A DNA stretch of 64,000 nucleotides, taken from Diadema setosum (lineage: Eukaryota; Echinodermata; Echinoidea; Diadematoida; Diadematidae). The position numbers and the translations under genes were made by a program. The notes beneath the pieces are model-generated. The model had not been told where the DNA came from and did not search any database. It was given only the letters and a program-made list of their open reading frames with translations. The number at the start of each line of letters is the position of its first letter. Position 1 is the stretch's first letter. This document shows, piece by piece, positions 23,206 to 61,460 of this stretch. The DNA lies in assembly GCA_033980235.1 (NCBI GenBank), contig CM067070.1:9750195-9814194 (forward strand), given 5' to 3'.

Positions 23206-23250
23206 ATATTCTCATCAATTTTGATTTCTAATTGTTTATCTTATGATACA

Positions 23251-34490: not shown

Positions 34491-34625
34491 CTAAAAAGGG
34501 GGCGAAGTGTTTTCCAGTCGCATTCTACTTCTAGGGGTCTCTAATTAGAGCTGAGTGAAATTTGAAACTTGTGCACCACATCCTTCTGTTGCCAATGACA
34601 GTGAAATTTTCAGTGACCATATAAA
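34491..34625 (-). promoter_or_regulatory. IgR-1 promoter and noncoding first exon (proposed)
   Basis: A TATA-like TTTATAT (complement of 34619-34625) precedes the conserved block with CTGTCATTGGCAACAGAAGG by about 30 nt. A donor GTAAGAATT follows at 34490. The same arrangement occurs at 61321-61460 before IgR-2, with donor CAG then GTAAGAATT. Conserved sequence continues upstream to about 34920. The transcript start is inferred at about 34590. No transcript evidence is available. Confidence 0.5.
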
Positions 34626-34639
34626 AGAGATAGCAATAG

Positions 34640-35012
34640 GGATGAATGTGAAAGCTGAACTAGAAAAGTACTGTCGAATATAGGACAACAAATTGGTTTG
34701 AATGAGAGTCTCTTCTTTTCTTTACAATAGAATAGAAAGTTCATGAATGCTAAGTTCCAGGCATACCATGGCACTCTGGCTGTGTTCTTAGCGAAGTGTC
34801 ATTGAATTTGCATCCTCCACTTTTCACAATGTAAAACTATTTGTCCAGCAGCGTTGACTACCACTTGAAGTGACAAGCGCTCTTTCCACAGAGCTTGTAC
34901 AGATGAGGGACAAAGGGTATCAAAAGAAGCCCATAAACAACAAAAATTGCTTTTCTTTGCCTACACGGAAACACAGATGAATACGCATCCCATGCATGTC
35001 ACCCAGATGAAC
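34640..35012 (-). promoter_or_regulatory. Conserved upstream region of IgR-1
   Basis: This interval aligns with 61480-61848 upstream of IgR-2, sharing CAGCGTTGACTACCACTTGA, AGTGACAAG and GATGAGGGACAAAGGGTATC. The conservation between paralogues in noncoding sequence may reflect regulation or merely the age of the duplication. Confidence 0.45.
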
Positions 35013-35335
35013 TTAAAGGAGACCTCCGGATGATTTTCATATTTTTACATATGAACAACAATAAATTAGTGATACTGAGTTCACAGTTTCAGAATTTATC
35101 GTGATCGGGATGAGAAATAAGAATATTTTCAAAATTTTGAGAAATTGCAATGAACAAGGATGGTGACATGGCAGGGTCACCACAAGAATGCATGAGTTGG
35201 GGCTCAAGGAAGCAGAACAAAAGAAGAAGGCATGCCTAGATTATACACACTGGTGAACTCGCAAGCAAGTGGTATTGTGATGGAATTACACAGCTACATG
35301 TAACACCCCTAAAAGGGTATAGGGGCTAGAATGAT

Positions 35336-42107: not shown

Positions 42108-42115
42108 ATTTCTTG

Positions 42116-42385: not shown

Positions 42386-42724
42386 TTAGACGTTCCAATA
42401 AACATGATGAATGTCCTGCTGCGTGTCACCAATGGTCTCATAATGAGCCAATCCATGTACTGAAGCATCTTCGCCCTGGTTAGACCTCATTCTTTGGGGA
42501 TGGCCAGATGGAGTGTTTGATGTCTCTCCCATGGGTAACTTCGGTTTCACGTTCTCGTCTGACTTCATTGATAGAGATACACCCAGATGGGTTAATGCCT
42601 TTATCAGGTCTGAGGTTGATATTCCAGGAAGCACCGATGTCATGGGCATGTAACCAGTGGAATCCTGGGAACTGCTCGTCTGCTGGTTTACGGTGGATAA
42701 TGTCGAGAAGTCTTTGAAAGTGTT
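42386..42724 (-). CDS. IgR-2 terminal cytoplasmic exon with tyrosine motifs
   Basis: The acceptor TACTTCTCAATTACAG gives a phase 0 entry, matching the preceding exon. The frame runs 112 codons to TAA at 42386. It starts NTFKDFSTLS and is rich in Ser, Thr and Pro. It has three tyrosine motifs: STGYMPMTS (YxxM, the PI3-kinase SH2 consensus), LAHYETIGD (YxxI) and HHVYWNV at the very C-terminus (YxN, a Grb2-type motif, also YxxV). None is a perfect ITIM. This suggests phosphotyrosine signalling, which is inference from motifs only. A 269-bp MITE lies 98 bp upstream. Confidence 0.85.
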   Translation of the reverse strand, partial: NTFKDFSTLSTVNQQTSSSQDSTGYMPMTSVLPGISTSDLIKALTHLGVSLSMKSDENVKPKLPMGETSNTPSGHPQRMRSNQGEDASVHGLAHYETIGDTQQDIHHVYWNV

Positions 42725-42822
42725 CTGTAATTGAGAAGTATAGCATATGTAGTCCCTATGTTTGCATCTCAAAATAAGTATACTTTTCGGTGAGTTACGT
42801 ATTGTTACAGTCCGCCACTGTG

Positions 42823-43091
42823 GCCCGAATTCACGAAGGTGGTACATTTGAAACCATGGTTTAATCTATGGACAATTTGTATGGAGCACCAAGTGACCAT
42901 GTCGTCAATGAAATGTTCATTTCGTTGACGAAAAGATTTTCGTCCACGAGATGTTGTCATTTCGTTACGAAGTGATTATCTCGTCGACGGGATGACAGAT
43001 TTCGTAACGAAATAGGCCATGCGACACTTGGCGCTCCATTGTCCACGGTTATAACCATGGTTTCAATTGTACCACCTTCGTGAATTCGGGC
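42823..43091. mobile_element. MITE, TIR GCCCGAATTCACGAAGGTGG
   Basis: The left terminus GCCCGAATTCACGAAGGTGG at 42823 and its complement ending GAATTCGGGC at 43091 bound 269 bp with inverted symmetry (ACCATGG at both sides). The centre holds several TTTCGTTACGAAAT-like words. It sits in the last IgR-2 intron, just before the terminal exon's acceptor. Confidence 0.85.
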
Positions 43092-43728
43092 TTTCAAGTC
43101 TAGTTTCGCCAGTGTTAACATTGCCTTGTCTATACTGTCATTTCAATGTCCCAAGCATCACCAAATTTTGAGCATGGATTTTTCTAAAATATTGTATTCA
43201 TTTCCCCAGGTTTATCAGATTACTGTTTAAATAGGCCTACTACTAGGTCACGAGGAACGTAATAGCCCTATATAGCAAAACTCCTTGCTAAAAGACGACT
43301 TGCATAAAAAGGCCCAAGGAGTACAGCAAGATTTACAGTGCCCGAACGAACCCAGTAGTATTCGTGATACTCGTGACTTAAAAGTAGCAGCAAACCTATC
43401 TATTATAAACGAGCTGAAGACTTAGCGAAAGAACATTTCAATCTTCATCTATGTGACCTCTCATGTTTACCGTTTGGAAATGATTATCGTATTAACAATC
43501 AGTCCAGGTCAAATATGGTGAATGAACAACTGTTTATAGTTCAATTTAATGTCTGCCTCATATAACACAGCTTTCTTTTATTCTTTTTGTCTGTCTGTCT
43601 GACGAAATGAAACTATGTTCTACCTTCATCTAGCAATGGTCTAAAAAAACAAATATATGTTGATATAGTTATTAGTCATCATTATCATTGCTACATTAAA
43701 GGCAGTTCAGTACTGCTTTTGCATGTAC
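43092..43728. other. IgR-2 last intron
   Basis: AT-rich with a short TCTG run near 43589. No additional exon is supported. Confidence 0.4.
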
Positions 43729-43958
43729 CTCATCTGAAGTCGAATCAGCAAAACACGGATCTTTTCTGTGCCTATCACCCTCCACTGAAGTCGTGGGCTT
43801 TGACAGAGGTGTCATCTCAAGACGAGTAGGAGACAGGAACTGACTCTGATGAGTGTCTTGTAGTTGTCGTTCTTCAGATTGTTCATTTGACACAATGTCT
43901 TTTGTATTTAACGGATTGTGCGGAGAGGATTTCCGCCCTGGTGACTGAGTCTTTGGCC
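43729..43958 (-). CDS. IgR-2 first cytoplasmic exon
   Basis: The acceptor TCTTTCAATAAAACAG enters in phase 1 and the donor GTACAT leaves phase 0. The 230-bp exon encodes a polar tail segment with GPKTQSPGRKSSPHNPLN, SNEQSEERQLQDTHQSQ and SPTRLEMTPLSKPTTS. SP and TP sites are frequent and there is no tyrosine. It has no recognised domain and is probably disordered. It joins the transmembrane exon to the tyrosine-bearing terminal exon. Its frame is supported by the total coding length being divisible by three. Confidence 0.75.
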
Positions 43959-44579
43959 CTGTTTTATTGAAAGACATAATCAATTTGAAATTTCTTTCAC
44001 ACACAGGCTGCCATAGACTTATGAGAGAAATCAACTTTAAAATCAATTTTAAGTCTTTATAAAAACTGAACACTGGTGTCTCGAGTCCTCTACTAACACT
44101 TTTTAATTTGAACTGCAAAATGAAAATGTTACTCAGAAATAACCCTCTCTGAGTTCCCCCGTTTTATTTTCCTTCTTTTTCAGGTTAATATCCAAAATTA
44201 CCCCTTTTAACTTGTTTGCTATAGTGTTTGCGAAATTTACCCGTGCTTTATTTCACTGGAAAATGTTTCAATTGAATAAAGTGAAGATAAATTGAACTGG
44301 ATTTACTTCCTGACCACAAATAAGTCAAACCTACTAATAGTAAAACATTTTATGATGAAAGGAAATTTTCTTTTAAAGATATTTGTCTTACAGCAAACAC
44401 TGATAAATGAAATTTAATTTAATGGAACAGCTTGAATCTAATCAGTTAATAGCAAATATGGCTGGTAGAATCAACCACTTAAATCTTCCATCCATGACTC
44501 TTTTCCCGTTGATAGTCTCATTCCATTCTCTACTGCATTTTCCAGGAAAATCTGATGATACATACGACCAAAATCTTAA

Positions 44580-44955
44580 AGGGATGGTATAGTTTGGCTA
44601 AGGTCGGATTCAAATTTTAATTTTGTGCCGCATAATGAGGAAACATTTCTGGAAATATAAAAGAACATGCAGTTCTACGAAAAAATCAAAGTTTATTGAT
44701 TTTTTTTTTCAAACTGCTGAGATATCCAAAATCATTGCAAAGCAAAGTGGTCCTAATTAAAGGTGGGTTCCAGCTTTTATCAGGACTATATTTTCTACTT
44801 TCTTTAGGATATAATATCAACCATTACAAAACTAATTTTCCTCAAATAACTTAGAATTCCGCTTAGAATTGTATGCTCTTTAATATTTCACGGAAGGTTT
44901 CTGCTTATCTCATAAAAAAGTTGAAATCTTGAAGCCCCTTCTCAACCAAAGTTAA
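44580..44955. mobile_element. Degenerate TTAA-type MITE
   Basis: Starts TTAAAGGGATGGTATAGTTT at 44576, as in the 40.8-kb element. The right part (CCTTCTCAACCAAAGTTAA) has lost a clear terminal repeat. It lies in the IgR-2 intron between the transmembrane and first cytoplasmic exons. Confidence 0.55.
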
Positions 44956-45116
44956 TTAATTCTTTGGACAGAAAGACATTCATGTCAGACATAATTGTAC
45001 TTGCTGAACCTGGAATATTCTTTCCGTTTTTTTTATTTTTACACCTTATTTCTGTTTGTCTTTACTTTTTAAGAACTAAGTTATTGACTTAACAGTAATG
45101 TTGGAAGCTGGCTAAC

Positions 45117-45227
45117 CTCTAAGCTTGAAGGCAAAAACCATTACACAGCATATGATTATCATGAGGCAGCCTGTCACAGGGGGGGTGACTTTGCAGAGGA
45201 AGAATGGATCCTTTTCAGCAGGAGGAT
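45117..45227 (-). CDS. IgR-2 transmembrane exon
   Basis: This 111-bp exon is phase 1 at both ends, with acceptor ATTCATGCACAG and donor GTTAGC. It encodes PPAEKDPFFLCK, then the hydrophobic helix PVTGCLMIIICCVMVFAF and the basic KLR. It matches 11538-11651 with conserved cysteines inside the helix. The acceptor has a weaker pyrimidine tract than in IgR-1. It places the three Ig domains outside and 190 residues of tail inside the cell. Confidence 0.85.
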
Positions 45228-46436
45228 CTGTGCATGAATTATAAATTTTGAACGCCAAGAAAATAATGCATCAGGAAGAACAGACACTGGACAAACCAAT
45301 CAGTTAACTAAAATATCAAAACACTGGGTAATATGCATGTTTTCATCAGGTAAAGAATGGTGATTCTAGAGCAGTTTCTTGAGAAGATAACGAAGAATTG
45401 GCAAGTTTTTGTAATGTCAAGCAAAAACCGGTGTGTATGTGCAATGAAAATATCCTGACATAGATAAGATATATTTATAATACGGAATGCATGCGACAAG
45501 AAATTTCTGAAATATAGAGTACTTTCCACCTTTGGACAATAAAGTAGTTTATTCCATCCAACAAAGAAGGCAAAAATTTACAAAATTGAACAATCACAGG
45601 AACAATATGCAATTAAAAAATATGCCCCTATAATCATAAAATAACAATGCATGCGTGTATCCTTGCCGTGGTTGTTGTTCGTGATATTGTTCCGCTGATC
45701 CTCTTTAATTCTTGAGATGTGATAGTAAGTGTCACATTAATGATGACACTCATGAAGGCCGTGTGATTTGTGAAAAAAGGCCTAAACTACCTGTCAACAC
45801 TGGTCTCTTCCAACAATTGTTAAAGGGTAGCAATAATCAAGCAATCATGCATGTATTCGCAGGTGATGCAGATGATGTAGTAATTTATTGTTCACATATG
45901 GCATTGGGCGAATCTCATTAGTCTCCTGGCCACCTCCTAAACGGAACCCTAACTTCGAGGAAAGCTGCAGCTCTCCCTCTTTCAAAAATTTGCAGACGCG
46001 GCATGATGCAAAATGGCCATTAGCACATTAGTGTGATCAACCAAATTGGAATTAAAAAGCACGTGGCTTCGATCAACATTTTCATATTGGAAAGGCCTTT
46101 TGTTGAAAAAGTATGTACATCTGTTTAATAAGGAAGCACATTGTACCTAAAAAAAAAATTCCTGAGAATTACATAACAATTGAAAAAGGTCATTTGCTAA
46201 CTTGCATAGGAAAATGTACACAATATGCTTCATATAACCTTGAGTGCAATTTTTTTCCATGCATTTTGACATAAAATGCATTTTTTCCCACAACAATAAT
46301 GATATCTGGTGGCAATGATATGCCATTTATGTTATGAGTGATAAAATTCCTTATCAATTCCCGTTTGAATTATAAAAATCGGTAAAATACTTTTTGAGAC
46401 ATACCAAAAAATGCTAGGGGGATATTACTTTTTTGG
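45228..46436. other. IgR-2 intron, part shared with IgR-1
   Basis: Bases 45300-45750 align with 11700-12350 of IgR-1. From about 45950 the sequence is unrelated, as part of the roughly 6 kb that IgR-2 gained. No exon is recognised. Confidence 0.45.
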
Positions 46437-47330
46437 GTGAATTATGTTACGCCAAATGAGTCAATTTTGGATAAAGATTCAATTAAACTTTTGTATACTG
46501 TGGTTATTCAACCGTGTATTGATTATTCATGTTCCGTTTGGGAAAACTGCTTTGTGAAAATTAAAGAAATTCTTCATCGTTTACAAAAGAGGGCAGCACA
46601 AATTATCGCATCAAATTTTGATTACGAAACTGAAAATGGGAATGAGATAAGCAAGCTTTTGAATTTACAAGCATTTGAAAACAGAAGGAATCATTTTTGT
46701 CAACGCTCATGTATAAATGCATCCATTGACTTGCCCCCACACGAATGTACAATAATATTGAGATGATTTTCAAAAGGCATGGGTTTAATACAAAAGCAGC
46801 TGATTCTTTAAATGTGTTCCACCTATAGAAACTAAATGTACAGTGCTTTAAATGCTGCTTTAGATATGCAGGAGGAAAGGATCGAACTCACTAACGACTT
46901 TGACATAGGCATGCACCTTTTCCGCTTTTTTATGATTGTGGGTTTATAAATTCAATTTCGTGTTGTTCTGTTTTAAAGAAAGAAAAGTGACAGAAAAATT
47001 GTTCCTGCTGAAAGAGTTTTTACACTCCTTTTGTAGGCCAATGGTTTGATTGTATAGAATATCACATAATTTTAAATAGTTGCTTTTTGATATTAGTTTT
47101 ACATTGTTTTGTCATATCGTAATTGATCCAGTTATAATGGATTTTATTTAGACGTTTTGCTCCTTTTAACTTTGTTTGTTTGTAGTGTTTCTTTTTAATT
47201 ATTTATGTAATATGATTTTATATTAATATATTTAGATTGTACAGGACCTTGATATCAAACCACATTCATCTGATGACCTTCTTATCCTGTCAAATGTATG
47301 TTGAAATATATAAATAAATAAATTTGTTTG
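46437..47330 (+). mobile_element. 3' fragment of a non-LTR retrotransposon
   Basis: The translation LDKDSIKLLYTVVIQPCIDY, CSVWENCF and RLQKRAAQII is the post-RT region of a Jockey/CR1-like ORF2. A frame break follows near 46763. About 550 bp of 3' UTR ends in a TAAATAAATAAATTT tail near 47322. It is 5'-truncated and opposite to the IgR-2 orientation. Confidence 0.75.
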
Positions 47331-47607
47331 ATAGATACTTTATTTTCTGCAAATCAATATACATAAGATACATAATCATGAACATGTGGGAAACATACAA
47401 AGTATATTCAAAACAGAGTCGTTTGACTTGCATAAACAACGATATGAAAGGAAATTAATGATCAGTATGCATGTCTATGCAGCAGGGATTACAATAACAA
47501 TTATACACATTGTAGTTAAGAAGCGATCATGCAGAAGGCCGCCTTTGTAAGTATTGCTTGAAAAGATGGCCGGCCCGAGGAAAAGGTAGGGACGTACTAG
47601 ATTCGTT

Positions 47608-50600
47608 CAAGTTGTTCAAGTTGATTTTATTTCACTTCCAACAAACAAATAAGAAATACAAAGAAACACTCATATACACAGACGTCATGAAATCAGTACC
47701 ACAATGCGATGAACAGAATAACATCGTAAGAAAAATATAGGTAAATTATCAACAGAGATACAAATATCTGTTACGTCACTGTGGTAAATGCTAAACGATA
47801 TTGCTGGAAATGGAGGGGACTGCTAAAAAGCAGAGCTTGTAGAATGCAGTCCCCTCATCAAGAAAAAAAAAAGATGCAAAAAAAAAATGAAAAAAAATGA
47901 AAAAAAAAACAGACAAGACATAATACAAAGATACAAGCACATTTACGGACGCACATTAACAAACACATGGCGGCTCTCTTGTAAGGAAAAAATTAAGGAG
48001 GATATAGTAGTGAAGAAGGTAGTAAGTCCGAAGTGGACAAGGGGGGGGGGGAGGAGGGGAGAGGAGAGGAAAATGGTGGGTCATATCCAAGGCACTGGAG
48101 GCACAGAAGCACGGGCTCGATGGTGAAGAAAGAGTAGTGAGAATAACGAAGCAACAACAACTTTGAAAATCAAAAGTAAAAAAAAAGAAAAATGAATTAT
48201 GCTGCGTACGAAGTTTTTAGATAATTCTTTAACTTTAAAGAAAATGTATGAAAACTTAAAGCTTCTTTTATGTTATTATCCAGAGAATTCCAGAATTTTG
48301 GTCCAGAGAAGGAGAATAAAGATTTTGCAAAAACCGTTCTAGTCAAAGGCAAATGATATTCATGGGATTGACGGGTTGGATATGCATGAACAGTTTCATT
48401 CTTTAAAAACATGGAATCAAACACAAGGGGGAGAGAATGGTTGGTAAGTTTATACATGAATTGTCCTAATTGCAAACGATAAAGATCATGAATTTTCAAG
48501 ATATTATTTTCGTGGAATAAATTATTAGTATGAGTTCTCCACGATTCGTGACAAATGATACGAAGAGCTTTTTTCTGCAATAATAATATTCTTTCTGTAT
48601 AAGTAGAAAAAGTGTTTCCCCATGCGAGTATCCCATAATTTAAGTAAGGTAGTATCAAAGTAGAATATAACATAAAAAGTACATTTTTGGGAAGATAAAA
48701 TTTAACTTTGTTTATAACACCTATATTCCTTGAAATAACACGACATACAGTATCAATATGCGAACCCCAGGTAAGTTTATTGTCCAGGATCAAACCTAAG
48801 AATTTGATGGAGGAAACTTCTTCTATGACCGTGTCTTCCAGGAAAATATTTCTCGGTAAATTTTCCAGCGAATTACTGAACAACATGCATTTAGTTTTTT
48901 GCAAATTTATTGATAACTTGTTCACTCTTATCCATTGAAGTAACTTCATTAATTCACTATTTAAATTATCAATTAATCGATCAGAATCAGAATCAGATAA
49001 AAACACATTGGTATCATCCGCAAATAATAAGAAAGAGAGGATGTTTGAAGAATTTGACATATCATTCACATAGAGAATAAATAAAAGGGGACCTAGTAAG
49101 CTTCCTTGAGGAACACCACAGTTAACATTTTGTGTAGTCGATGCATGTCCGTTGATAAATACAAACTGTTTTCGATTAGTAAGATAACTCCTGAACCACT
49201 CCAAGGCCTTTCCTCTGATACCATAATGTGATAATTTGTGAAGTAGTATGCTGTGGTCTATGGTGTCAAAGGCCTTGGAGAGGTCCAGGAAGACTCCAAT
49301 AGTATGATGAAATGTGTCTATCGCTATCAAGGAAGGTAAGGATTGCATGAGATGTGCAATGCTTTTGCCGAAATCCGAATTGATAATCAGAAATAATTTC
49401 GTGGGTGTCTAAGAAATTCAAAAGCCTGGTGTAAACAACCTTTTCTAATATTTTCGAAAGAGAGGTTAGCAGGGATATTGGTCTATAATTGGAGACATCT
49501 TCCCTTTCCCCTTTTTTATGGACGGGAATTACTTTGGAGACTTTCATAGCCTCAGGGACAACGCCATTACTTATAGACAGATTAAATACATATACAAGTG
49601 GATCAACAATATAATCAATAATACTTTTCAAAAGAACATTATCAATGCCGTCATATCCAGAGCTTTTTTTATTTTTCAGATTCTGAACTATATCTAATAA
49701 TTCATTTCTGTGCAAAGGCACGAAAAACAATGAGCTTGGATTGGGGACTTCTAAATAATCTTGAAAATTCAGATAACTATGTGGAATATTTTGGGCAAGA
49801 TTACTTCCTATTTGTGAAAAATACTGGTTGAAAATATCAACTATTGAGGAAACATCAACAAATACATCACCATGTTTGATTGATGTAATACGGGGTTTAT
49901 CCTTATTTTTGTTGATAGCCATATTGATAACTTTCCAAGTATTTTGAACATCATGTTTAAACAAACTTATCTGAGTAGTGAAATATTTCCGTTTCTCATA
50001 ACGTAATATTTGAGTGAGGACGTTTTTATATGAAGTGTATTTATCATGAGATTGCTGGGTACGTTTAATTTTGTCAGCATAATACAAATTATTCTTTCGA
50101 TTGATTGATCGCAGTAAGGACTTGGATACCCATGGAAGTCTAGGGGATCTTTTATAATTTCTGGATTTCTTTTTAACAACAGGAACATGCTTATCCATAA
50201 CCGAAATTAAAGTACTCATAAACAAGTCATAAGCCTCATTTGTATTTTCGGTATTATATACAAAAGACCAATCCACATTACCAAGGTCATTTTGCAACCT
50301 CTCTATATTTCCAGGTGTCACCTTCCGGAAAGTTGACACCGGGTCGTTTATGGTGATTTTTTTCTGAAGGGGAATGTGAGTGAAAATAGGGTAATGATCT
50401 GATAAATCTGAAAGGATGATACCGGAGACCGGTAAGGGGTTAATATTACAAAATATATTATCAATCAGAGTTGCCGAGTGATTGGTTACTCGAGTTGGTT
50501 TGGTTATAAGGGGTAAAAAAGATGTGGACATCATAATATCAAGAAAAGATTGAGCAGTATTCATTGTTTGAAACTTAGATAAATCTATATTGAAATCTCC

Positions 50601-51387
50601 CATAATATAACAGTCTTTATTATGAAATATTGGATTATGGAATAGAAACTGCAAATAATCCAAAAAATCTTGGGTGTTAGAATTAGGAGGTCTATACATT
50701 ATAAATACAAGTATATTTTTGGCATGGGCGACCTTGATTTCAACACATAATGATTCAACGATTCCGTTCATACAAATTAAATCTTTCTGTATAACGTAAT
50801 CAAGGTTTTGTTAAACGTATAAACCAACACCTCCGCCCATTCTATCGCGCCTACTATTCTCTATAAAATCATAGCCTGGAAGAGAATATGCGGAAGCAGA
50901 ATCCTGAGTAATCCATGTTTCAGTAAGACCTATTATAGAAAAAGATATGTCATGAGTATTATCCAAAAAACAACAGAATTTATCAAAATTCTTGTTCAAA
51001 CTCCTTATGTTCAAATGCAATAATGAAAAACAATCGGTGAGTCCGGTTAAAGATTTGAATTGATTCATAGTATAACACTTGGAGCTTAAATATCGTTCAT
51101 TATTATCCTCATCAAATTCTACATCTGTTTCACAGAAATCGAAATCATAAACAGCAGGATACTCATCATTTTGGGAGTCATTAATTGTGTATGATACTGG
51201 ATCTTGATGAAACATTTCAAAAAATTCGTCGTTATTTAGTGAACTGAAAGCGAAGTTTTCAATTCGCATCATCTAAAATATAAAGGATGAATGGCAAGAC
51301 CGAACTCGAGTTGCAGCGAGAACCATGCAGAGTGTGTTCGAGTGCACAAGGCAATGACCCAAGGAACAGAAGAAAAGGTTCTAGATT
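47608..51387 (-). mobile_element. 5'-truncated CR1-like retrotransposon with 11-bp target duplication
   Basis: CTAGATTCGTT occurs at 47597-47607 and 51388-51398 as the target duplication. Between them, on the minus strand, lie a short leader, ORF2 (51272-48197), a 3' UTR with A-rich and G-rich runs, and the 3' tail CAACTTGAACAACTTGAACG. ORF1 is missing, so the copy is truncated just before ORF2. It lies in the IgR-2 intron between the transmembrane and third Ig exons, in the same orientation as the gene. Only two frameshifts were seen, so it is young. Confidence 0.85.
48197..51272 (-). pseudogene. CR1-like ORF2, nearly intact
   Basis: Three frame segments abut. 51272-50811 holds the N-terminus and early endonuclease motifs (LHLNIRSLNKNFD, IGLTETWIT, GGGVGLYV). 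50771-49266 holds the rest of the endonuclease (MYRPPNSN, IMGDFNIDLS, SDHYPIF) and the RT start (NKKSSGYDGI, NYRPISLLTSLSK, YQFGFRQKHCTSHA). 49348-48197 holds the RT core (LDLSKAFDTIDHSIL, CGVPQGSLLGPLLF, FADDTNVF) and the C-terminal domain (YLNYGILAWGN, GPKFWNSLD). Frameshifts lie near 50800 and 49325. All key catalytic motifs of endonuclease and RT are visible. Confidence 0.9.
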
Positions 51388-51597
51388 CTAGATTCGTTAA
51401 TATACAAATTCTGCTGCGAATATAGCAGGGGAAAATAAACTCTGATGTGATGGTGGTGAATGTGCGTGCAAGTGCTTGAAAGTGCACAAGGGCAGATAGG
51501 CTGGAATTTAGAATAATAGAATTGGTTTGCTGGAAGAAGGAACGATATGCGATGTTGCTATCGAGAGACCAACATTAGTCATATAAATTATTTGCTT

Positions 51598-51930
51598 TTA
51601 ATTCGTATTTGAAGTATACTGTAATAAAATGTGCTTCTTTAAGTTTGATTTGAATGGAAAAAAAGAGGCACACTGTTTCAACTCCTCAGGGAGAGTGTTC
51701 CAGGTATCCGGAGCGTGATGTCTGATCGACTTTTGAGCAAGTAAAAGCTTTGGATTACTTAAATGAAAATCATGGGAACGACGGGTAGGGTATGAGTGAA
51801 TGTGGTGATTGGTTACTAGGGCATTATGGAAAAATGGTAATAAATTTCGAGTGTGTTTATACATATATATGGCAGATAGGTATGAATTTACATCATGGGC
51901 CTTTATAACTAGTAAAATAACCTTCGCGTA
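51598..51930 (-). pseudogene. CR1-like ORF2 C-terminal fragment
   Basis: The minus translation IHSYPTRRSHDFHLSNPKLL and SIRHHAPDTWNTLPEELKQC matches the C-terminus of the element at 9463-10596. It starts abruptly near 51930, where IgR-2 intron sequence homologous to IgR-1 (about 12480) begins. It is a 5'-truncated relic. Confidence 0.75.
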
Positions 51931-52223
51931 AAACATAGGCTTACAAACTTCATTACCGATCATGATGATGATGTTCCGCAAAGCTTTTTATTGCCTTCTC
52001 CTCTTCCTCATCCTCATACTCCTTACTGCTTTCCTCTTCATAATCCCTCTGACTATTCAATATATTAAATTAAATATGCCGTGGGTCATTTTATAAGCAA
52101 TGTCATATGACACTTTTTTTGTGAGGAAAAAATAGGTCAAAAGTAATCAGCTGCTAATCAAAAACTCAAACAAAATTATATAGGACGATACGTATTTCAA
52201 AAAATGTAATGATAAAAACTTGC

Positions 52224-52538
52224 CTTTTGTAGTCTCTAAATCTAACTGGAGAATTCTTGTATCATTTCCGAGGCTATTGCCTGCGATGCATTCAATTGTT
52301 CGGCTGATCTTTCCCGTTAAATCGAGCGGTGTTATAGTGAGAGTCGACGTGACGATGACACCATCAATTCCAGTAAAAACAGTATGAGTTGCTACCATGT
52401 CTTCTAAGTCAGAACTTTTACTGTCGCCATATCGCCAATAAACAGATGATGGTGGGTTTGACTTCACGATACAAGAGACTATTAACATTTCCTTCTTCTC
52501 GGCATAGTCTTTTCCTAGGCGGAGTATAACAGGTGCCT
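52224..52538 (-). CDS. IgR-2 third Ig-domain exon (C2-like)
   Basis: This 315-bp exon is phase 1 at both ends, with acceptor TTGACTATTCACAG. It encodes an Ig fold with LIVSC (strand B), SSVYWRYG (core W) and RTIECIAGNSLG (strand F C). The donor is AAAG then GCAAGT, a GC donor shared with IgR-1. The start codon-like ORF limits are irrelevant because the exon is internal. Compared with 12769-13092 it lacks three codons near the end. It forms the membrane-proximal extracellular domain. Confidence 0.85.
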
Positions 52539-53769
52539 CTGTGAATAGTCAAGACGAACAATGGAAATAATCTAGCACTAAAGCTTTGCCATTCATAATA
52601 GGAAAGTATATAAAGTATCCTAATACATTCGGATTGTTAGACCTTCATCCTCACACAGCTTGCATTTTTGCCACAGGAATTAAGGGATGTATAGCCCATA
52701 CATGTTTTCCCAAAGACTTACTGATAACAGCAACAACAACAACAAAAAAGATTCAGGTACGTTTATTTTACTTTCGGTTACAGGTACTTAGTGACATCCA
52801 TATCAACTTGCAACTCGCTGCTGCCTCTCAGTCAATTTGCACTATTTCCCTTCCTTACAATCTCCCCATGTCGCTTCCTCATCGTCTCTCTTCTTTCTAG
52901 GCTATTCTTCTGCAAAGCAACAGTCCCCCAGGGACTACATAATGGAACTGAAAACCTCTCTCCTTCAAGGTATCACAGGTTGATGTTCAAGCATGGTCAA
53001 TGTTTCCTCAGGATAGACCAAAATGTCTAATTTTACTTAATTATTTTAAAAAAAAAGTATATTCATCTTTACCATCTACTGTATATCAGCACTCTGGCTA
53101 TAAGACTATCGCTATATCTGAAATAATTTTTTTTTTCTCCAAATTTAGATTATCAGTTACCTGCAGCTGTTGTCACAGATTATGAATATTATCATAATCA
53201 CTATACCGTTTCTATAAGCCTATATCATAACTGCAAAAATTTGCTCACATTTGGTTCGATCGTACATTTTAGCTACTCATCGAGCAGGTAAATGTATTAT
53301 TTGTAGGGAAAAAACAAAACAAAACATGTTAACAAGTCATCATCACAGTCAAAGTAATTGTTTATTCATGCACATAAAAGGTAGCAATTTATTAGAGGGC
53401 AACAGTACTGCCCGAGATCATGTACCAAGTTGATTATCAACACGATCAAGGTTTAAATACCGACGCTGGTACATCATGCGGTAAGATACGGTAGTCAAAC
53501 TCTTGTAATAGTACAATGTGTATCACTACCGCCACAACAGCTGGTTATCTTTGGGTTTGCACTGCGGTATTTTTACCATCACTGCCTTAGACAATGGTAC
53601 CTTGCTCAAAATTTCCAGCAAGGTGTATGGCATATTAGAGCTTGTCATAACTGAGCGAAAAGCCGTGATTACATGGCGTAATGTGCCTAAACAACATGTA
53701 TGCAATAATATTTAGGCCTATTTATTGATTCTTTCAGAACAGAGAAAGCTTAGAGAAATGAAAGCTTAC
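52539..53769. other. IgR-2 intron between second and third Ig exons
   Basis: Aligns with 13093-14544 of IgR-1 apart from the MITE present only there. No exon is seen. Confidence 0.5.
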
Positions 53770-54111
53770 CTCCTCTTACAATATTGACTGTAGACTCGGT
53801 GACCTTGTAATATCTCCGTTTCTTAAGCAGACATTTTATTGACTCGTAATCACGTTTGGTGACGTTGAATGTAATTCTCACAGAGTTGACGGAAAGGTTG
53901 TGGCGGTTGTGGTAGAATCTGTTTTCAGTTTGTACGTCAACGCTAAAGTCGGCTAGAGTTGTCTGCCACTCCAACTTCATATCCGGTTTCAAGGGGGTTT
54001 CAGTGACGCAAAGTATCGATTTGTGGGTTCCAATGGGCAGAATAATCGTGTCCATGTCCTTCAAGGTGTGGTTTGTCTGTTCGTCAAGTAGGACGAGAGT
54101 AACTGATGATA
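53770..54111 (-). CDS. IgR-2 second Ig-domain exon
   Basis: The 342-bp exon is phase 1 at both ends, with acceptor TTTTCCACACAACGCAG and donor GTAAGC. The Ig-like domain shows KSILC (strand B), KLEWQTT (core W), TFNVTKRDYESIKC (strand F) and an N-glycosylation sequon NLS. The ending STVNIVRG continues through a GAG codon into the third Ig exon. One codon shorter than the IgR-1 copy (14545-14889). Positioned between the V-type and C2-like domains. Confidence 0.85.
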
Positions 54112-55137
54112 CTGCGTTGTGTGGAAAATCAAAACCAAGTTGCTGTGATCGACTCGTGGAACAAAACATATAAATAACAATAGTTATTTATGTAAAAAAG
54201 AATAGAAAATGTAAACATTTTCTGATTATTTCAAGGAAAATTATTTATGTATAACGCAATGACTTATTGAATTATTATTGTGTCAAATATAGAAATGCAG
54301 TTCTAATGATGGGTCAGAGGGAAGAATGCCGAGATATAAGATTGAGGCATTCTGCTTTTAAGACACTAATCAGGAATATAGTGAATTCTAATGAAGGATT
54401 TGTTCTTTGCGTTGCTTTTTGTTCATGGCAATTAATTGAAAAATATGTCTTTCATCGACGTAAATTGACACTAGTCATTATGGTCTTTCAATACGTTTGC
54501 AGTACCTGCTGATAAAAGGGGTCAAATCCTATCACTTGCATGTTATCGTCGAGAGCTTGGGAAATATCGGGGCCAGCGGAATCGAGGAGGCCGGGCCCCT
54601 CTCCCCCATTTTTGTAAACACAATATTACACACAAATACAATGACTATAACCACCCCCCCCCCCCCCCGCAATTCTATGCGTGTTAAACATAATTATTAT
54701 TTTCAGCCGAAAGCCTGTCTCTCCACCACAAATTTTGCGTTAAAATGCTAAGTATTCTTTTTGTATTCTCCGGTCTTGTATTATATTGAAACAGCCATGA
54801 GGTTAACACAATACATTAACTTGATTTGAAAAGCTTCACTTCACAAACTTCACTAAGTGTTGAGGTACTGGAATTCTTTCTTGTTTTGTTATGGGAACAG
54901 ATAAAGGAATGAAATTATTCCAAACCAAAAAACAAAACAAAACAAAACAATATCTAACTTAAAACCATTTGCGACTCAAATCAGCTTAAGTAACTGTAAG
55001 AGTCCGATCACCTATTTCTCATATAATGATAGTTCCCTGTAAAGTGCAGATATATGTATATATGTTTTTGACAGCTCCTCGGCGTCAGTAGCTCATTTCA
55101 CATTCTTAGGGACAAGCGCGCCGGAACACTTCTGGTT

Positions 55138-55620
55138 TTGGGGGGACAAAATCTCAACGGGGGAACATTATTATGTGACGATGTTAGATCCTCGGCGCGG
55201 GAGCGAAGCGAGCGAGCGGGGGGAGGGGGATGGATATACCCCCTCCCCACTGTAGGAAGCTTTTGTAAAACAGGATACAAAAGTCGCGTTTATAGACCAT
55301 TTAAAAGCAATTTTCTAAGGAATTAAACATATAGTGAAAAATAATCAGTGCGGAGGACTATGATTATTACATACGGGAGTACATAATAATGTGATGGTGC
55401 GAGATCATCGGCGAGAGGGTGTGGGAGGGGGAATACCCCTTCCCATAGTAGGGACTTTTTGTAAAAGCAGAGTATAAACGGTAGGGACTTTTTGTGAAAA
55501 CAGAGTATAAAAGTCGCTTCTATTGAGCATTTTAAATTAAATTTCTGAGGAATTAAACATAGTAAAATAAATCACTGCGAAGGACTATGATAATAACTTA
55601 TGAAAACTTTTCATTTTACT
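55138..55620. repeat. Two tandem copies of a unit of about 235 bp
   Basis: Copy 1 (about 55150-55380) and copy 2 (about 55381-55620) share GGAACATTATTATGTGA/GTACATAATAATGTGA, GATCNTCGGCG, CCCCTTCCC-like, AGGAATTAAACATA and GGACTATGAT words. Copy 2 has an internal GGTAGGGACTTTTTGT duplication. Confidence 0.65.
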
Positions 55621-55982
55621 ATAAGTACGGGCAGAACGAGCGAGCCACTTTCACTTCGCAATTTATCTGAAATGTACTCATTAAAAGCTTAAACGTGATT
55701 GCATTGTTCGAACAATGAAAAATATTCTTATACTGCTAGAAAGCAAAGAAGAAAATGAAAAACTGTAAGGCTTACTAAAGGTATGTTTCAGCGGGCACAC
55801 TCGAGGACACGAGGCTACCATCTATACACTAGATTTGCTCATAAGTTATATAGATACAATAATGTCTGTTGTAAGTGTAATACACCCATTTTCAGTTATG
55901 AAATTATAATATTTAGACAAGAAATATGCCTTTATTGTTCATTTTCGTCTTTAAATAAGTAATTATTTGTTACAGGGAGCAC

Positions 55983-56110
55983 TTGGGGGGGCGCAAAAAC
56001 TCGTTTTGCCCCCCACCCCCATTTTTTTTTTTTTGGGGGGGGGGGTGGGGGGGGGGCAAGTGCCGCCCTTGGCCTGCCCCCCCCCCCCCCCTGCTTCCGG
56101 CGCCCTTGCT
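55983..56110. repeat. GC-homopolymer-rich inverted repeat
   Basis: Runs of G and C of up to 14 bases and a T12 run alternate, with complementary ends GGGGGGCGC and GGCGCCC. It is prone to assembly error. Either strand gives long spurious ORFs of Pro/Gly. Confidence 0.6.
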
Positions 56111-56396
56111 TAGGGACATTCTTGATAATAGGCTTTCAGGAAAATTGATTGGTGGTAATGAATACCATGATTTCTTCGGCAGAGTCCCGAGGTTTGTATA
56201 CACTAAAACTATATAGCTATAGGGGCGCTACCGGGCAGTCGACAATTTACAAAGACTTATAAAATCTTATTTTCATATACCACACCTAAAGTAATAGATC
56301 CAGCGTTCACAGTTGAATTATTAAGCTGTTGCTTTCCTAACAATTCTGTAGGAGTTCTAAAGAACACTTACCTACCTTGTCTAAAAGGAAAGAAAA

Positions 56397-56455
56397 TAGT
56401 AAGATGTGTCACTCAAGCAGTACTATATCATATTACTGCTTGAGTAACACATCTT
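56397..56455. repeat. Short hairpin, 26-bp arms
   Basis: TAGTAAGATGTGTCACTCAA and its continuation pair with TACTGCTTGAGTAACACATC and its continuation, with one mismatch and an 11-base loop. IgR-1 has only the right arm (about 15995-16018). Confidence 0.75.
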
Positions 56456-56927
56456 ACTAAACAACGTAAGTAAATGTGTACTATACCAACATAAGTTAAA
56501 GAATGTAAAAGCACTTTGTATTTGTATATTTTGCTTCATATCGTTCTATTGTTGTAATATCAAGAGAAATTGTGGAATTTATCTCTGGAGAGGGCGGAGG
56601 GGGAGAGGGAAAGAGTCATGAAATAAGAAAAAAAAAAACCTATAAATGCTCAAAACTTCTGAGATTCCGATTCGCTGAGATTTAAACTTGGTGTTTCAAA
56701 TTATAAAAAAAAAAAAAAAGCTCTGCACTAACAGAATTCCAAGATAATATACACGTATGTATATGTTTATACATGTTTTTATATATAAGAATTTGAGGAA
56801 ACTTGCCATTTACGTGACCACAAGGTATCGCAATTACTGACTAATAACCAAATTCAAAAGAGCTTGCTTGAGGTTGTTGTCAAGTATTTAAGGGAGACTA
56901 CAGGTTCCTGCCAAACTCTAAACTTAC

Positions 56928-57239
56928 CTTTAACAGTTAAATTTACTATACATGTGATGGGCAAAGCTTCTGGCTCGGTAGCGGTATACCTATAAATTCC
57001 TTCGTCATGTAAAGATACATTTGTGATGATCAGGTTGCATGACACCACTTCATCGCCTGATCGCACCAAGTCGAAACGTGGCAGGTTGAACAGACCTTCC
57101 TTTCCTGGTCTATGTCTAATCAAATAAGAGTTATTGATTCCAAGCATCCAGAAGACCTGGTGAACTAATAAGTTGGAGCAGCAGGGTAATTCGACATTGT
57201 CTCCAACAGTAGCGCTGACATGTGTCACGTTTCCTCTAC
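56928..57239 (-). CDS. IgR-2 V-type Ig exon
   Basis: This 312-bp exon is phase 1 at both ends, with acceptor TTGTCTTCCAG and donor GTAAGT. The translation starts GRGNVTHVSATVGDNVELPC across the junction. Core features are the strand B CC pair, QVFWMLG, FNLPRFDLVRSGDEVVSC, and HDEGIYRYTATE at strand F, where Tyr replaces the canonical cysteine. A further Cys lies in LPITCIVNL in strand G. Sequons NVT and NLT are present. It follows directly from the signal exon at 57887 and is the membrane-distal domain. Confidence 0.88.
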
Positions 57240-57886
57240 CTGGAAGACAAGAAGTGACGAAAGAAGTGGCAGAAAGCCACTTTCAAACTCCTCGGATCAG
57301 TTTTACTGAAAACAATATGTCAAGTTTAGTCAAATGTCTCACTCTTTTTCTTTCGGTGATAATGAGTCAAAATGTGCACAAATTTCACACACAAACCTAT
57401 AGACGTGTGATTAGCGTGCCACGCAGACGGTTAAGAATTTCTGGGCATGTATTATCAAAGAGAGAGAGAGAGATGGATCCGATATACCTACTTCGTAATG
57501 TGCATGTGTAACTATGATCATAATATTGCAGTTCCTCTCCAAATGTAGTGTAGCAACGAAACGATCATTTCTTCTTTCTTGTCCAGTGAATAAACCACGT
57601 ACAAATCATATAGGATGATACAATTAAAAGAAATAGGATAATAAAACCCTCTGTGACTCAGACAGGCTGAAATAACCAAAAAAATGGTCAACTAGCATTA
57701 TTTCACTCTCAAAACAATATTGCCCCATAGTATAAGGGTCGAGCCCACTGCTATCAGCCTTTGCCCCCCCCCCCTTTTTTGAACACGTTTATCTTGTCAT
57801 GTATATATTAAAAGCGCTAAAATGACATACACTGTGTATACTATTTTATGTAGAATGACAGAAATACGTGTGGCCGAATATCTCAC
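57240..57886. other. IgR-2 intron between signal and V exons
   Basis: Only 647 bp, against 1.9 kb for the IgR-1 counterpart. 57540-57730 aligns with 31190-31400. A C run lies at 57764-57774. Confidence 0.5.
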
Positions 57887-58005
57887 CCAAATGGACAGCA
57901 AGGAGAATGAAGAAGACTATGAAAAACATGCTTTTTTAATCTGCACGATATCACGCAGAATCGAGGTATTCAAGCAGTCTTCGTTATAATCATCACGTAA
58001 TAAAC
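57887..58005 (-). CDS. IgR-2 signal-peptide exon (5' UTR plus start)
   Basis: The acceptor CAGAGATTGCAG precedes 76 nt of 5' UTR. The ATG is at 57929-57927, and the coding part reads MFFIVFFILLAVHLG across the phase 1 junction, a strongly hydrophobic signal sequence. The donor is GTGAGA. Homologous to 32870-32996. With the six downstream exons, coding length sums to 1692 nt, exactly 564 codons including stop, which supports all chosen junctions. Confidence 0.87.
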
Positions 58006-58169
58006 CTGCAATCTCTGTTAAGAAAAGAAAAACACAAAAAGACAAGTCTCAATGTTGTTGTATATGAAAATCATTACACGAGCATAAGAATATTCACCCA
58101 AAAAAAAAATAAATCATTATGATTCACCGAATGACTTCTTTCAATACATACACGCGCATTATTGAAATT

Positions 58170-59147
58170 CTCTTCCTTCAATTCAATTCAATTTATTTCA
58201 ATAGTGTATTTATTTCCATCAAAAATACATGATACAAACCGGTACATGTGTCAATTTTACTTTCATCCAGCTAGAAAGGACAGTCCACTGAACACTGAAA
58301 TATATGCACGAATGGTATTATAAGAGAAACAAACAAAAAAAAAAACACACACACACAAAACAAAGCAAATTGGCTTTGTCGATGTAACAAAAAAAAAAGG
58401 AGTAACCAAAAACGATGGAAACGAGTGCTCCGCTAAAAACTCAAGCTTGTAGGACGTGAACACTGAAAAAAAAAAACAACAGCAGCACCAATATACCCAT
58501 AAGATGTATCTATGGTAAATTCACCAATTTTTCATTGTATCAATGTACATTATTTGGGTCGTTGATGCTGATAATACAAACATGCTATCAACAATACTTG
58601 TTTTAGCATGCAAATAAAATATATTGTAACATAACAATATTATAGACACTTTTCATCTGGTTGTGTATACCAGGAAAATTTTGATAAAGAAAATGACAGA
58701 GAAGACCATTATACGTGGTCACGCAAAACAACAACATCATCATCAACAACAACAGCAATAAAACACAGAAACAACAGAAATGAAAAAAATATGCATACGC
58801 TGTTACTTGACAACGAGGAACGAGGAAAGATGAGCAGGGAAGAATGGAGAAACAAAAGGAAGAGGAAAGGAATGGAAGGGGTCTGTGGACACGTTACTCA
58901 CGGATCAAGGATGGGTGAAAGTGTGGAAGACAATTAAGTGGTAATAGGTTATGTGGAAAGCATTTTTTTTTTTCAGTTAACAGATTCTTTTAAATAATAA
59001 GCTTTTCCAAAATTTGGGTCCGGTATAAACAAATGAATTTTGAGAATGTACGGTTCTCATTCATGGCAGATGAAATTCTAATCATTTGATCGTCTCATGA
59101 TGGGATAGTATATTTGCGTGGTTATTTTTAAAGATTAAAGAGTTCCT
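58170..59147 (-). mobile_element. 3' end of a non-LTR retrotransposon in the first IgR-2 intron
   Basis: The right part on the minus strand translates to a degenerate CR1-like ORF2 C-terminus (IRISSAMNENRTFSKF, about 59100-58990). The tail at the left end is AAATAAATTGAATTGAATTG (complement of 58172-58194). The IgR-1 intron is continuous at this position (near 33220), so insertion followed the duplication. Much of the interior is A-rich UTR. Confidence 0.7.
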
Positions 59148-59251
59148 AACTCACTGACTCATGAATCAAAACCCTTGTCTGCAGCAGCCATAGCAGAGTG
59201 GATTTCAATTTATCCATATCACACTAAACAGGAGTGAGCTGAACTTGAAAG

Positions 59252-59253
<2 letters not shown>

Positions 59254-59290
<37 letters not shown>
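59254..59290. repeat. (CT)n microsatellite
   Basis: Pure CT run of about 18 units, absent at the aligned IgR-1 position (about 33350), which reads GCTCTGCCTCACTG. Confidence 0.95.
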
Positions 59291-59293
<3 letters not shown>

Positions 59294-60429
59294 ACAATCA
59301 GATTCCTTATCAAGCTTGTAAACCAGAGTCCAAAAACTACTCTGGAGCACTGAAAATAGGCTTGCCAAGTTTGGTTTTGATACCGGCATGTTGCCCAATG
59401 ATATCTCAGCCTAATAGTATGTGTATTGTCCCTGCACAGACAACTTCAGAACACCTCCAGTGAATCTCAGACTTTGTAAAATCTTCCTCTTGGTTTCATT
59501 GCATGACAGGAATTTTGAACAAATCTATAGCCATACTACAAGGATTATATTCCAATATATTAATCTCGCGATTTGAATCCTTGAACTTAATCTGATATGG
59601 ACCGATATGAATGAGTCAGTTCAGAAGACAGTATGTGCATTGCCGGTACAACTACAAGTACCAGAAGAAACCGAACTGGCAGTATCAGATTCTGGTATGT
59701 GAACTAACATCATCACTATTTTTGTTTTTTGTTTTGTTTTGTTTTTTGTTTTTTGTAAATGCCAGAAGACTGCACAAAGACAAGCAGAGTAAATATGTAT
59801 ATTAAAAAATGAACATTCCGTCAAAAGAGAATTTCAAGCACTAATGAAATACTGCAATAAAAAAAATCACTAAAATATATAGCCAGACATGGATTTTTTA
59901 GGGCAGACTTTGATAGAGTATAGAAACTAAGCTTTAAACTGATGTATAAATCAATACAAATGTAGTTTCCTAAACTACATGAATAACGGTAAAAAATACA
60001 CAATCCAAAAAGTGCTTACTGAGCAGAGAGGATTGTAACGGGCTTTAATGCAGGTGCTCCATCCTCATCAAGTTGCGTTCTGCGCAGCTGTGAATGAGTT
60101 TGACCATTGTCAAGACTTCAGAGGAATGAGTTCGTGAGACGCCCATAAATTTGTGTCTAAGATGCTACACTTTATCAGTTTGTTTTTGTGATTTGCCTTG
60201 TGTAACCAATACAAGATACCTGAAGTTTACAACTTTTGCACCACATTTTTTGTAAGATGTCCTTGGACTTGTGATAACTTGTTTTCTACCTCTGTTAATA
60301 CCATAAATTACAGAATCACAAATCTGTGCTAGATAGAAATCTCTTGAATGGAAATTAAGCTTTTGAAAATTAATGTCCTCTAACATAATTTATCTAATGC
60401 TGGATTAATCGAATCCCCAATGATCTTTT
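59291..60429. other. IgR-2 first intron, conserved blocks
   Basis: 59318-59710 aligns with 33615-34030 of IgR-1. Beyond 59710 the alignment fades. No coding exon is supported and short ORFs differ between the paralogues. Confidence 0.45.
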
Positions 60430-60961
60430 GGGTGCTGTTCGTTATTCCGAAGGTTTGTTAATCCAAAACACACAAATTCCCTATACCTAGATGTTCGTTA
60501 ATCCGAAAATGAAAAAGGGTTCGTTAATTCGAACATTTGTGGCTTTATTCCGAAGGTTCGTTATTCCGAAGGTTCGTTTATCCGAAAATGAAATAGGGTT
60601 CGCTATTCCGAAGGATCGTTTATCCTAAAATGAAATAGGGTTCGTTATTCCGAAGGTTCATTAATCCGAAAATGAATTAGGGTTCGTTATTCCGAAGGTT
60701 TGTTGATCCGAAGTGATAGGGTCCGTAACGAACATTCGGAACAATGAGCTTTGTTTCATTTTAGGATTAACGAACCTTCAGAATAACAAACCTTATTTCA
60801 TTTTCGGATTAATGAACCTTCGGAATAACAACCTCAACACATTTTCGGATTGACGAACCTTCGGAATAACGAGTCTTCGGAATAACGAACCTTCGGAATG
60901 ACGAACCTTCGGACTAAAGAACCTTCGGAATAACGAACCTCCGGAATAACGAGCTGTAGCC
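60430..60961. mobile_element. MITE of the TTCGTTATTCCGAAGG family, 532 bp
   Basis: The 8-bp direct repeat GATCTTTT flanks it at 60422-60429 and 60962-60969. The left end is GGGTGCTGTTCGTTATTCCG and the right end CGGAATAACGAGCTGTAGCC. The aligned IgR-1 site (near 34155, GATCATTTT) is empty. The interior is built of TTCGTTAATCCGAAAATGA units in both orientations with the fixed word ACACACAAATTCCCTATA. Confidence 0.9.
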
Positions 60962-61320
60962 GATCTTTTAACAGGTTTTCATATTCTTCTACAAAATATA
61001 TGATACTATAATTATTAAGGTCACATCCATGTATCAATATTGTTGTGATATCAAACGTATTATAGCATAAGCATAGGCCTACATGACGATAAAGAAGATG
61101 ACTGAAGCCTACAACAGCACAACATATCTTAAGTGACACATAGATGGCTTTTTTTTCTAAGGGAATGGAATAGAATAAATTATACAGTTAAAAAGTGATT
61201 ACTAAAGCCCTCCTTCATATTCACTCACCTTATAGAGAACATTGTGCATTCAGTGAAGAGAACGATGACGGCATTTCGTTTACAAGACACTCTTAAAGAT
61301 CAATTTATAATAATTCTTAC

Positions 61321-61460
61321 CTGACAAGGAGCGAAGTGTTTTTCAGTCGCACATTAGAGGTCTCTAATAACTCTACTAAATGAGTGACAATTTAAAGCTT
61401 GTGCGCCACATCCTTCTGTTGCCAACGACAGTGAATTTTACAGTGCCACATAATATTATA
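61321..61460 (-). promoter_or_regulatory. IgR-2 promoter and noncoding first exon (proposed)
   Basis: The donor CTTGTCAG then GTAAGAATT ends the proposed exon at 61321. It contains CTGTCGTTGGCAACAGAAGG, conserved with IgR-1. A TATA-like TATAATATTA (complement of 61451-61460) stands about 30 nt before the inferred start near 61425. Position, spacing and donor match 34491-34625. Confidence 0.5.

What the first reader, a model, noticed from the sequence alone, without database searches (positions are those of the whole stretch)
42386..61425. A complete, apparently intact IgSF receptor gene with three Ig domains and a tyrosine-motif tail
Seven coding exons on the minus strand join with consistent phases (1,1,1,1,1,0) and sum to 1692 nt, exactly 564 codons including stop. 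The layout is signal peptide, V-like, two further Ig domains, one transmembrane helix and a 190-residue tail. I do not recognise it as a named family. It could be an invertebrate immune-type or adhesion receptor.
Basis: partly seen in the sequence, partly recalled or inferred. Interest (0 to 1): 0.75.

Follow-up and report, generated by a model that had tools for sequence, protein, structure and literature searches.

The report
Tandem immune-type receptor gene family
The gene is real and belongs to a tandem family of cell-surface receptor genes in an unnamed animal genome; the family has an unusual cysteine pattern in its outermost domain and tyrosine signalling motifs inside the cell, but whether this particular copy still makes its full signalling tail is uncertain.

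Summary
The exon chain is in the sequence as described: seven coding exons, 1692 nt, 563 residues plus stop. It is not a lone gene. The window holds a second copy at 35.0-11.5 kb, whose tail exons lie just outside. The genome shows four genes head to tail (C12, 9.69-9.81 Mb) and a second cluster at 16.55-16.73 Mb on the same contig. Copies 2 (without its broken first V exon) and 3 give open spliced frames of 581 and 682 residues; copy 3 has two V exons.
Constraint is visible: no frameshifting indel against 15.3 expected; V-exon dN/dS 0.24-0.62.
The V domain is atypical: 13 of 13 intact copies lack the F-strand cysteine and share four others.
The tail keeps YE[STC]I in 6 of 6 copies, as an ITIM in three and an ITSM in one.
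Correction: 'intact' is uncertain. Tail exon 1 starts inside a copy-specific insertion; the acceptor shared by all five aligned copies leads here to a stop six residues on.
Best reading: a family of ITIM/ITAM-like IgSF signalling receptors. Ligand, cell type and species unknown.

The parts
61321..61425 (-).
   Evidence: sequence; surrounding 61858-61153 conserved with 35022-34332
57887..57929 (-). Gene 1 exon with start codon, hydrophobic leader MFFIVFFILLAVHLG
   Evidence: start codon and donor at the same place in genes 2, 3 and 4
56928..57239 (-). Gene 1 V-like Ig domain (D1), phase 1-1; four conserved Cys, no F-strand Cys
53770..54111 (-). Gene 1 domain 2 (D2), no Pfam Ig match; Ig-like by predicted fold
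52224..52538 (-). Gene 1 Ig domain 3 (D3), Ig_3/I-set-like; followed by a GC donor
45117..45227 (-). Gene 1 stalk and transmembrane exon
43729..43958 (-).
43729..44112 (-). Gene 1 tail exon 1 if the acceptor shared by all five aligned copies is used: stop after VQIKKC
42386..42724 (-). Gene 1 last coding exon: YMPM, YETI, YWNV and stop
48197..51272 (-). LINE-type retrotransposon inside the D3-TM intron of gene 1
   Evidence: RVT_1 8.1e-28 and Exo_endo_phos_2 4.7e-07 in two of its three frames
34332..35022 (-). Gene 2 promoter and 5' exon region
   Evidence: 76.7% identical to gene 1
32870..32915 (-). Gene 2 leader exon, open, same donor
30496..30972 (-). Gene 2 first V exon, broken by a 165-bp insertion
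16464..16775 (-). Gene 2 second V exon, intact
14545..14889 (-). Gene 2 D2 exon, intact
12769..13092 (-). Gene 2 D3 exon, intact, GC donor
11538..11651 (-). Gene 2 transmembrane exon; its tail exons are outside the window at C12:9737618-9737356 and 9736686-9736345

Best explanation
The finding is gene 1 of a tandem family of type I membrane receptors of the immunoglobulin superfamily. Shown: an array of four genes in one orientation, each with a conserved promoter region, leader exon, one or two V exons, D2, D3, TM and two tail exons (gene 4 with broken parts); coding constraint; a V domain with a fixed non-canonical cysteine set; a tail with a conserved YE[STC]I site. Inferred: the V domain(s) bind a ligand on a cell or microbe. 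Clustering then lets Src-family kinases phosphorylate the tail, which recruits SH2 proteins: phosphatases where the site is an ITIM, PI3K at YMPM/YMSM/YVPM, Grb2 at YWN, and possibly Syk at the YESI-x10-YWNV pair. The mixture (ITIM in genes 2, 4 and one cluster-2 copy; ITSM in gene 3; PI3K and ITAM-like but no ITIM in gene 1) suggests copies tuned to different signs of signal, like paired receptors. The product of gene 1 is either this full-tail receptor, by its copy-specific acceptor, or a nearly tail-less form by the shared acceptor.
For: Paralogue array and complete frames of genes 2 (without its broken first V exon) and 3. No frameshifting indel in 1068 coding bp against 15.3 expected from introns (P 2.2e-07), and stop-free in only 1.4% of 4000 neutral simulations. 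dN/dS gene 1-gene 2 median 0.60, 4 of 300 bootstraps at or above 1; all 28 pairs of 8 V domains below 1. 13 of 13 intact V domains share four Cys and have Tyr or Phe in place of the F-strand Cys. YE[STC]I in 6 of 6 tails, preceded by His in 5. In gene 1, 3 of 3 tail tyrosines are YxxPhi (131 of 20000 shuffles) and the relaxed ITAM pair occurs in 218 of 50000 shuffles; both tests were chosen after seeing the motifs. CD28 YMNM binds PI3K and Grb2 (PMC6753945, passages); ICOS carries E-Y-M-[D/P/F]-M (PMC11599192, passages). A sea star egg transcriptome lists Syk, Grb2 and Src-family kinases (PMC11593052, passages), which bears on the case only if the animal is an echinoderm.
Against: No transcripts, ligand or expression. 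Gene 1 itself has no strict ITIM, ITSM or ITAM. A shuffled gene-1 tail shows an ITIM in 5739 of 50000 cases, so one ITIM alone means little. Tail dN/dS is only mildly below 1 (tail 2 0.48-0.74; tail 1 0.58-1.72). YxxM is absent from genes 2 and 3, and YWNV is absent from 3 of 6 tails. Codon scores of the gene-1 tail exons lie at or above the top of the intron windows, but other frames of the same exons score as well or better.
Confidence: 0.55

Rival explanations
1. A cell-adhesion family of the Kirrel/SYG-2, nectin or NCAM style: the Ig domains bind the same or a partner molecule on neighbouring cells and the tail tyrosines link to Grb2 and the cytoskeleton.
For: The best sequence matches of the gene 1 ectodomain among solved structures are SYG-2 (E 0.0003) and KIRREL3 (0.00038). 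The V profile meets contactin-2, neurotrimin, OBCAM, NCAM2 and CD226 weakly. The D2 model is closest to NCAM Ig1, with Rst D2 also in the list. Neph1 binds Grb2 (title in the reference list of PMC8294545).
Against: Weak E-values and no Pfam family beyond generic Ig at or above cut-off; three or four Ig domains by exon count. Tandem duplication, multiplied V exons and an ITIM-type site are more typical of immune families (recalled).
Confidence: 0.3
2. Gene 1 itself is a truncated-tail copy: the shared acceptor is used, giving a receptor that ends FKLRVQIKKC, a decoy or dominant-negative member, while genes 2 and 3 signal.
Confidence: 0.35
3. Gene 1 is a decaying pseudogene in a family of which other members work.
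For: The array holds broken members: gene 2 V1 (insertion), gene 4 D2 (stop and frame change) and gene 4 TM acceptor.
Against: All seven exons of gene 1 are open with splice sites present, and it shows constraint against gene 2.
Confidence: 0.08

Closest known systems
CD28/ICOS-type costimulatory receptors of vertebrates
   Same: V-type Ig domain, single TM, YMxM-type PI3K site and YxN Grb2-type site in the gene 1 tail; a stalk Cys (FFLCKV) in genes 1-3, which recalls the CD28 stalk (recalled)
   Different: Three or four Ig domains instead of one, no F-strand Cys; no convincing homologue of CD28, CTLA4 or ICOS was found by others in sea urchin, acorn worm, sea squirt or lancelet (PMC11599192, passage); the motif is a resemblance only
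Hydractinia Alr allorecognition family
   Same: A clustered family of IgSF receptors with V-set and I-set domains in an invertebrate (PMC11999971, passages; 41 members)
   Different: The primary paper is not held. No sequence comparison was made; cysteine pattern and tails of Alr are recalled only
Oyster CgIgIT2
   Same: Invertebrate IgSF receptor with Ig domains, TM and an immunoreceptor tyrosine motif
   Different: Five Ig domains; the review calls the motif an ITAM while one title it cites calls it an inhibitory receptor (PMC11999971, passages). No sequence compared
Sea urchin V-type and IgV-IgC1 receptors
   Same: Putative transmembrane receptors with V domains, hard to find by similarity (PMC3308324, passage)
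   Different: Here three or four Ig domains, and C1-set was not among the Pfam matches listed; no sequence compared
Kirrel/SYG-2/Rst adhesion receptors
   Same: Best sequence hits of the ectodomain in the PDB; I-set-like domain, Grb2-type tyrosine site
   Different: E-values of 0.0003 to 0.011 only; invertebrate KIRREL1 orthologues mostly have more than 3 and up to 5 Ig domains (PMC8294545, passage)

Membership tests
Immunoglobulin superfamily | Ig fold domains | tested here: met
V-set domain, canonical | Disulfide between B-strand and F-strand cysteines | tested here: not met
   F-strand position is Tyr or Phe in 13 of 13 intact V domains; four other Cys are invariant; strand names inferred from the V-set pattern
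Type I receptor | Leader and single TM | tested here: met
   Hydropathy: residues 1-22 and 345-377 (19-residue windows above 1.5); a third such stretch at 106-128 is the V-domain G strand; 8 of 8 sequons on the outer side; no dedicated predictor
ITIM-bearing inhibitory receptor | [SILV]xYxx[ILV] in the tail | tested here: inconclusive
   Gene 1: none. Family: VHYESI in genes 2, 4 and cluster-2 copy c; gene 3 has THYESI (ITSM); 6 of 6 share the tyrosine. Consensus partly from PMC11599192, partly recalled
ITAM-bearing activating receptor | Yxx[LI]x6-12Yxx[LI] | tested here: not met
   Gene 1 has YETI-x10-YWNV, last residue Val; relaxed form in 3 of 6 tails; consensus recalled
CD28/ICOS family | Ectodomain of a single V domain | tested here: not met
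   Three or four Ig domains by exon count
CD28/ICOS family | YMxM-type tail site | tested here: met
   YMPM in gene 1; YxxM in 4 of 6 tails
Kirrel/nephrin family | Orthology by sequence | tested here: inconclusive
   E 0.0003 and 0.00038 with gene 1 ectodomain, 0.0065 and 0.011 with a two-sequence profile; no tree
Hydractinia Alr family | Sequence homology and shared domain set | not tested
   No Alr sequence fetched; primary paper not held
Diversified immune receptor with alternative V exons (Dscam-like) | Alternative use of tandem V exons in transcripts | not testable with these tools
   Tandem V exons exist (gene 3: two, phase 1-1; cluster 2: four within 4.5 kb) but no transcripts are at hand

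The most novel reading that the evidence does not exclude
A receptor family with a new cysteine layout of the V domain (B-strand CC, E-strand C, G-strand C, no F-strand C), amplified V exons (two intact in gene 3, four in a row at 16.547-16.552 Mb) that could be chained or chosen by splicing, and a tail whose one conserved tyrosine site has been tuned to ITIM, ITSM, or PI3K/ITAM-like surroundings in different copies. That would be an independently evolved system of paired, splice-variable immune receptors in an invertebrate.
Probability: 0.25. Interest if true: 0.75.

Novelty: new variant of a known kind. Interest (0 to 1): 0.5.

Why it matters
If the family is expressed in immune cells, it offers a compact locus (four genes in about 123 kb) in which tandem IgSF receptors with ITIM, ITSM and ITAM-like tails and duplicated V exons can be followed as they diverge. 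That bears on how paired activating and inhibitory receptors arise. The conserved lack of the F-strand cysteine also gives a structural question that one crystal structure would settle.

Tried and rejected
Homologues by protein search: 7761 candidates, none at E 10 or below; no Ig protein at all came up, so the database may be poor in animal proteins and the result is weak. Structure of the V domain: pLDDT 39, not used. Foldseek on the D2 model ranks RhoGDI first and other beta sandwiches too, so the Ig reading of D2 rests on the second-look list, the Cys pair shared by genes 1 and 2 and the one-domain-one-exon layout. Rfam: no match at gathering score. My first view that the second copy lacks a tail was wrong; the genome showed its tails outside the window. 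A positive-selection reading of the V domain was dropped: 28 of 28 pairs of 8 V domains have dN/dS under 1. The 15-codon windows were too small to use. Whether a paper describes the family: ten text searches listed none that I recognised as this family; they used words, not sequence, and a held library only. Counting gene copies by D2, D3 and tail protein was not possible.
Full report
The observation. On the minus strand, seven exons join to a frame of 1692 nt with end phases 1,1,1,1,1,0 and a terminal TAA: 563 residues plus stop. Leader and TM are the clear hydrophobic peaks, with a third stretch over the 1.5 line at the V-domain G strand (residues 106-128). All eight sequons are outside. In the whole window 16 stop-to-stop frames reach 150 residues, against a mean of 0.5 (maximum 2) in 60 Markov windows; by Pfam, position or similarity I assign every one to Ig exons, the two tail exons, or LINE frames and their antisense.

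Copies in the window. The window holds a second gene: promoter region at 35.0 kb, leader at 32.9 kb, a V exon broken by a 165-bp insertion at 30.97-30.50 kb, an intact V exon at 16.8 kb, then D2, D3 and TM to 11.5 kb. Between gene 1 and gene 2 the four shared exons (356 codons) have three indels, all multiples of three, and no frameshift; at the intron rate 15.3 frameshifting indels were expected (P 2.2e-07). Stop-free results came in 1.4% of 4000 neutral simulations. dN/dS has a bootstrap median of 0.60 (0.41-0.93; 4 of 300 at or above 1).

The genome. Fetched flanks show four genes in one orientation between 9.689 and 9.812 Mb. No family exon was found at E 0.001 in the 50 kb fetched upstream of the window or in the 29 kb fetched beyond the last tail. 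Gene 1 is the finding. Gene 2 is the second copy; its tail exons lie 12.6-13.85 kb outside the window; leader, V2, D2, D3, TM and both tails give 581 residues without a stop if the broken V1 is skipped. Gene 3 gives 682 residues with two V exons, four Ig domains by exon count. Gene 4 has a stop and a frame change in D2 and no AG before its TM exon. Each of the four has a match to the promoter region (in gene 4 only half of it, at 60-62%) and a leader exon. Genome-wide, the V protein finds 15 matches, that is 14 V exons, all on C12: six in this array and eight at 16.547-16.734 Mb, four of these within 4.5 kb. The tool scores only its best candidates (41 of 41 here) and calls counts of large families lower bounds. 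Attempts to count the other exons genome-wide did not complete.

The V domain. In 13 of 13 intact V domains the same four cysteines are present (CC in the B strand, SCNL in the E strand, one before the last strand), and the F-strand cysteine is Tyr or Phe. Strand names follow from the V-set pattern and are inferred; disulfide pairs are not known. All 28 pairs of the first 8 V domains have dN/dS under 1 (0.24-0.62), and so do the six pairs of the four tandem V exons (0.26-0.43).

The tail. Gene 1 has three tail tyrosines: YMPM, YETI and the C-terminal YWNV. It has no ITIM, ITSM or strict ITAM. All three as YxxPhi is seen in 131 of 20000 shuffles, the relaxed ITAM pair in 218 of 50000; these tests were chosen after seeing the motifs. 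Across six tail copies YE[STC]I is kept in 6 of 6, with His before it in 5 (cluster copy a has QYECI); the residue two before the tyrosine makes it an ITIM in genes 2, 4 and cluster copy c, an ITSM in gene 3, and neither in gene 1 and cluster copy a. YxxM is kept in 4 of 6, YWNV in 3 of 6. One of the six (copy c) has its tail exon in two frames. Tail 2 dN/dS is 0.48-0.74 over six pairs, tail 1 0.58-1.72 over six pairs: weak constraint.

A doubt about gene 1. Alignment of the tail 1 region of five copies shows a shared acceptor in 5 of 5. In the complete frames of genes 2 and 3 it opens the tail. By pyrimidine content the shared site looks stronger. So gene 1 may make the full tail, a truncated one, or both. 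Only transcripts can tell.

Mechanism. By established knowledge of IgSF receptors, V domains bind ligand, clustering permits phosphorylation by Src-family kinases, and SH2 proteins dock. CD28 YMNM binds PI3K and Grb2 (PMC6753945, passages); ICOS keeps E-Y-M-[D/P/F]-M (PMC11599192, passages). Src-family kinases, Syk and Grb2 are listed in a sea star egg transcriptome (PMC11593052, passages). Everything after the anatomy is inference here.

Comparison. Kirrel/SYG-2 give the best ectodomain hits in solved structures, but weakly. A review reports a 41-member IgSF allorecognition family in Hydractinia and the oyster receptor CgIgIT2 (PMC11999971, passages). Sea urchin V-type receptors are mentioned in PMC3308324 (passage). 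I compared no sequence of these last three, so membership in them is open. The species is unknown; the echinoderm guess was not tested.

Verdict. A real member of a real, tandem, constrained receptor family with a non-canonical V domain; a new variant of a known kind; interest moderate.

Noticed in passing
window 12572-13102 (minus), compare 52270-52000: Reading through the GC donor of the D3 exon in gene 2 gives a second TM-like stretch (IIVFDVLISMPITVGLYFL, mean hydropathy 2.17) and a short tail ending YEEESSM; in gene 1 the same reading stops earlier. A possible alternative membrane form.
   Followed up: partly
C12:16547468-16551947 (L030, L032, L033, L034): Four intact V exons in a row, 1.2-1.5 kb apart, each with a GT donor, 6.7 Mb from the array on the same contig.
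   Followed up: partly
window 30496-30972: The 165-bp insertion in the first V exon of gene 2 has complementary ends (CAGTGGCGGATCC ... GGATCCGCCCCTG), like a small DNA transposon.
   Followed up: no
window 48197-51272 (-), 22357-26769 (+), 27657-28508 (+), 9982-10596 (+), 18747-19199 (-): LINE-type frames with endonuclease and reverse transcriptase, whole or in fragments; 9982-10596 and 26074-26769 had no Pfam match and are placed by similarity.
   Followed up: partly
window 60477-60952, 41767-42120, 13199-13465, 1740-2207, 1-250: Related arrays of a 16/42-bp unit (TTCGTTATTCCGAAGG), in both orientations, in and around the genes.
   Followed up: no
window 17174-16861 against 55007-54676: The DNA just before the second V exon of gene 2 resembles the V-D2 intron of gene 1, perhaps a trace of V-exon duplication by unequal exchange.
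   Followed up: partly
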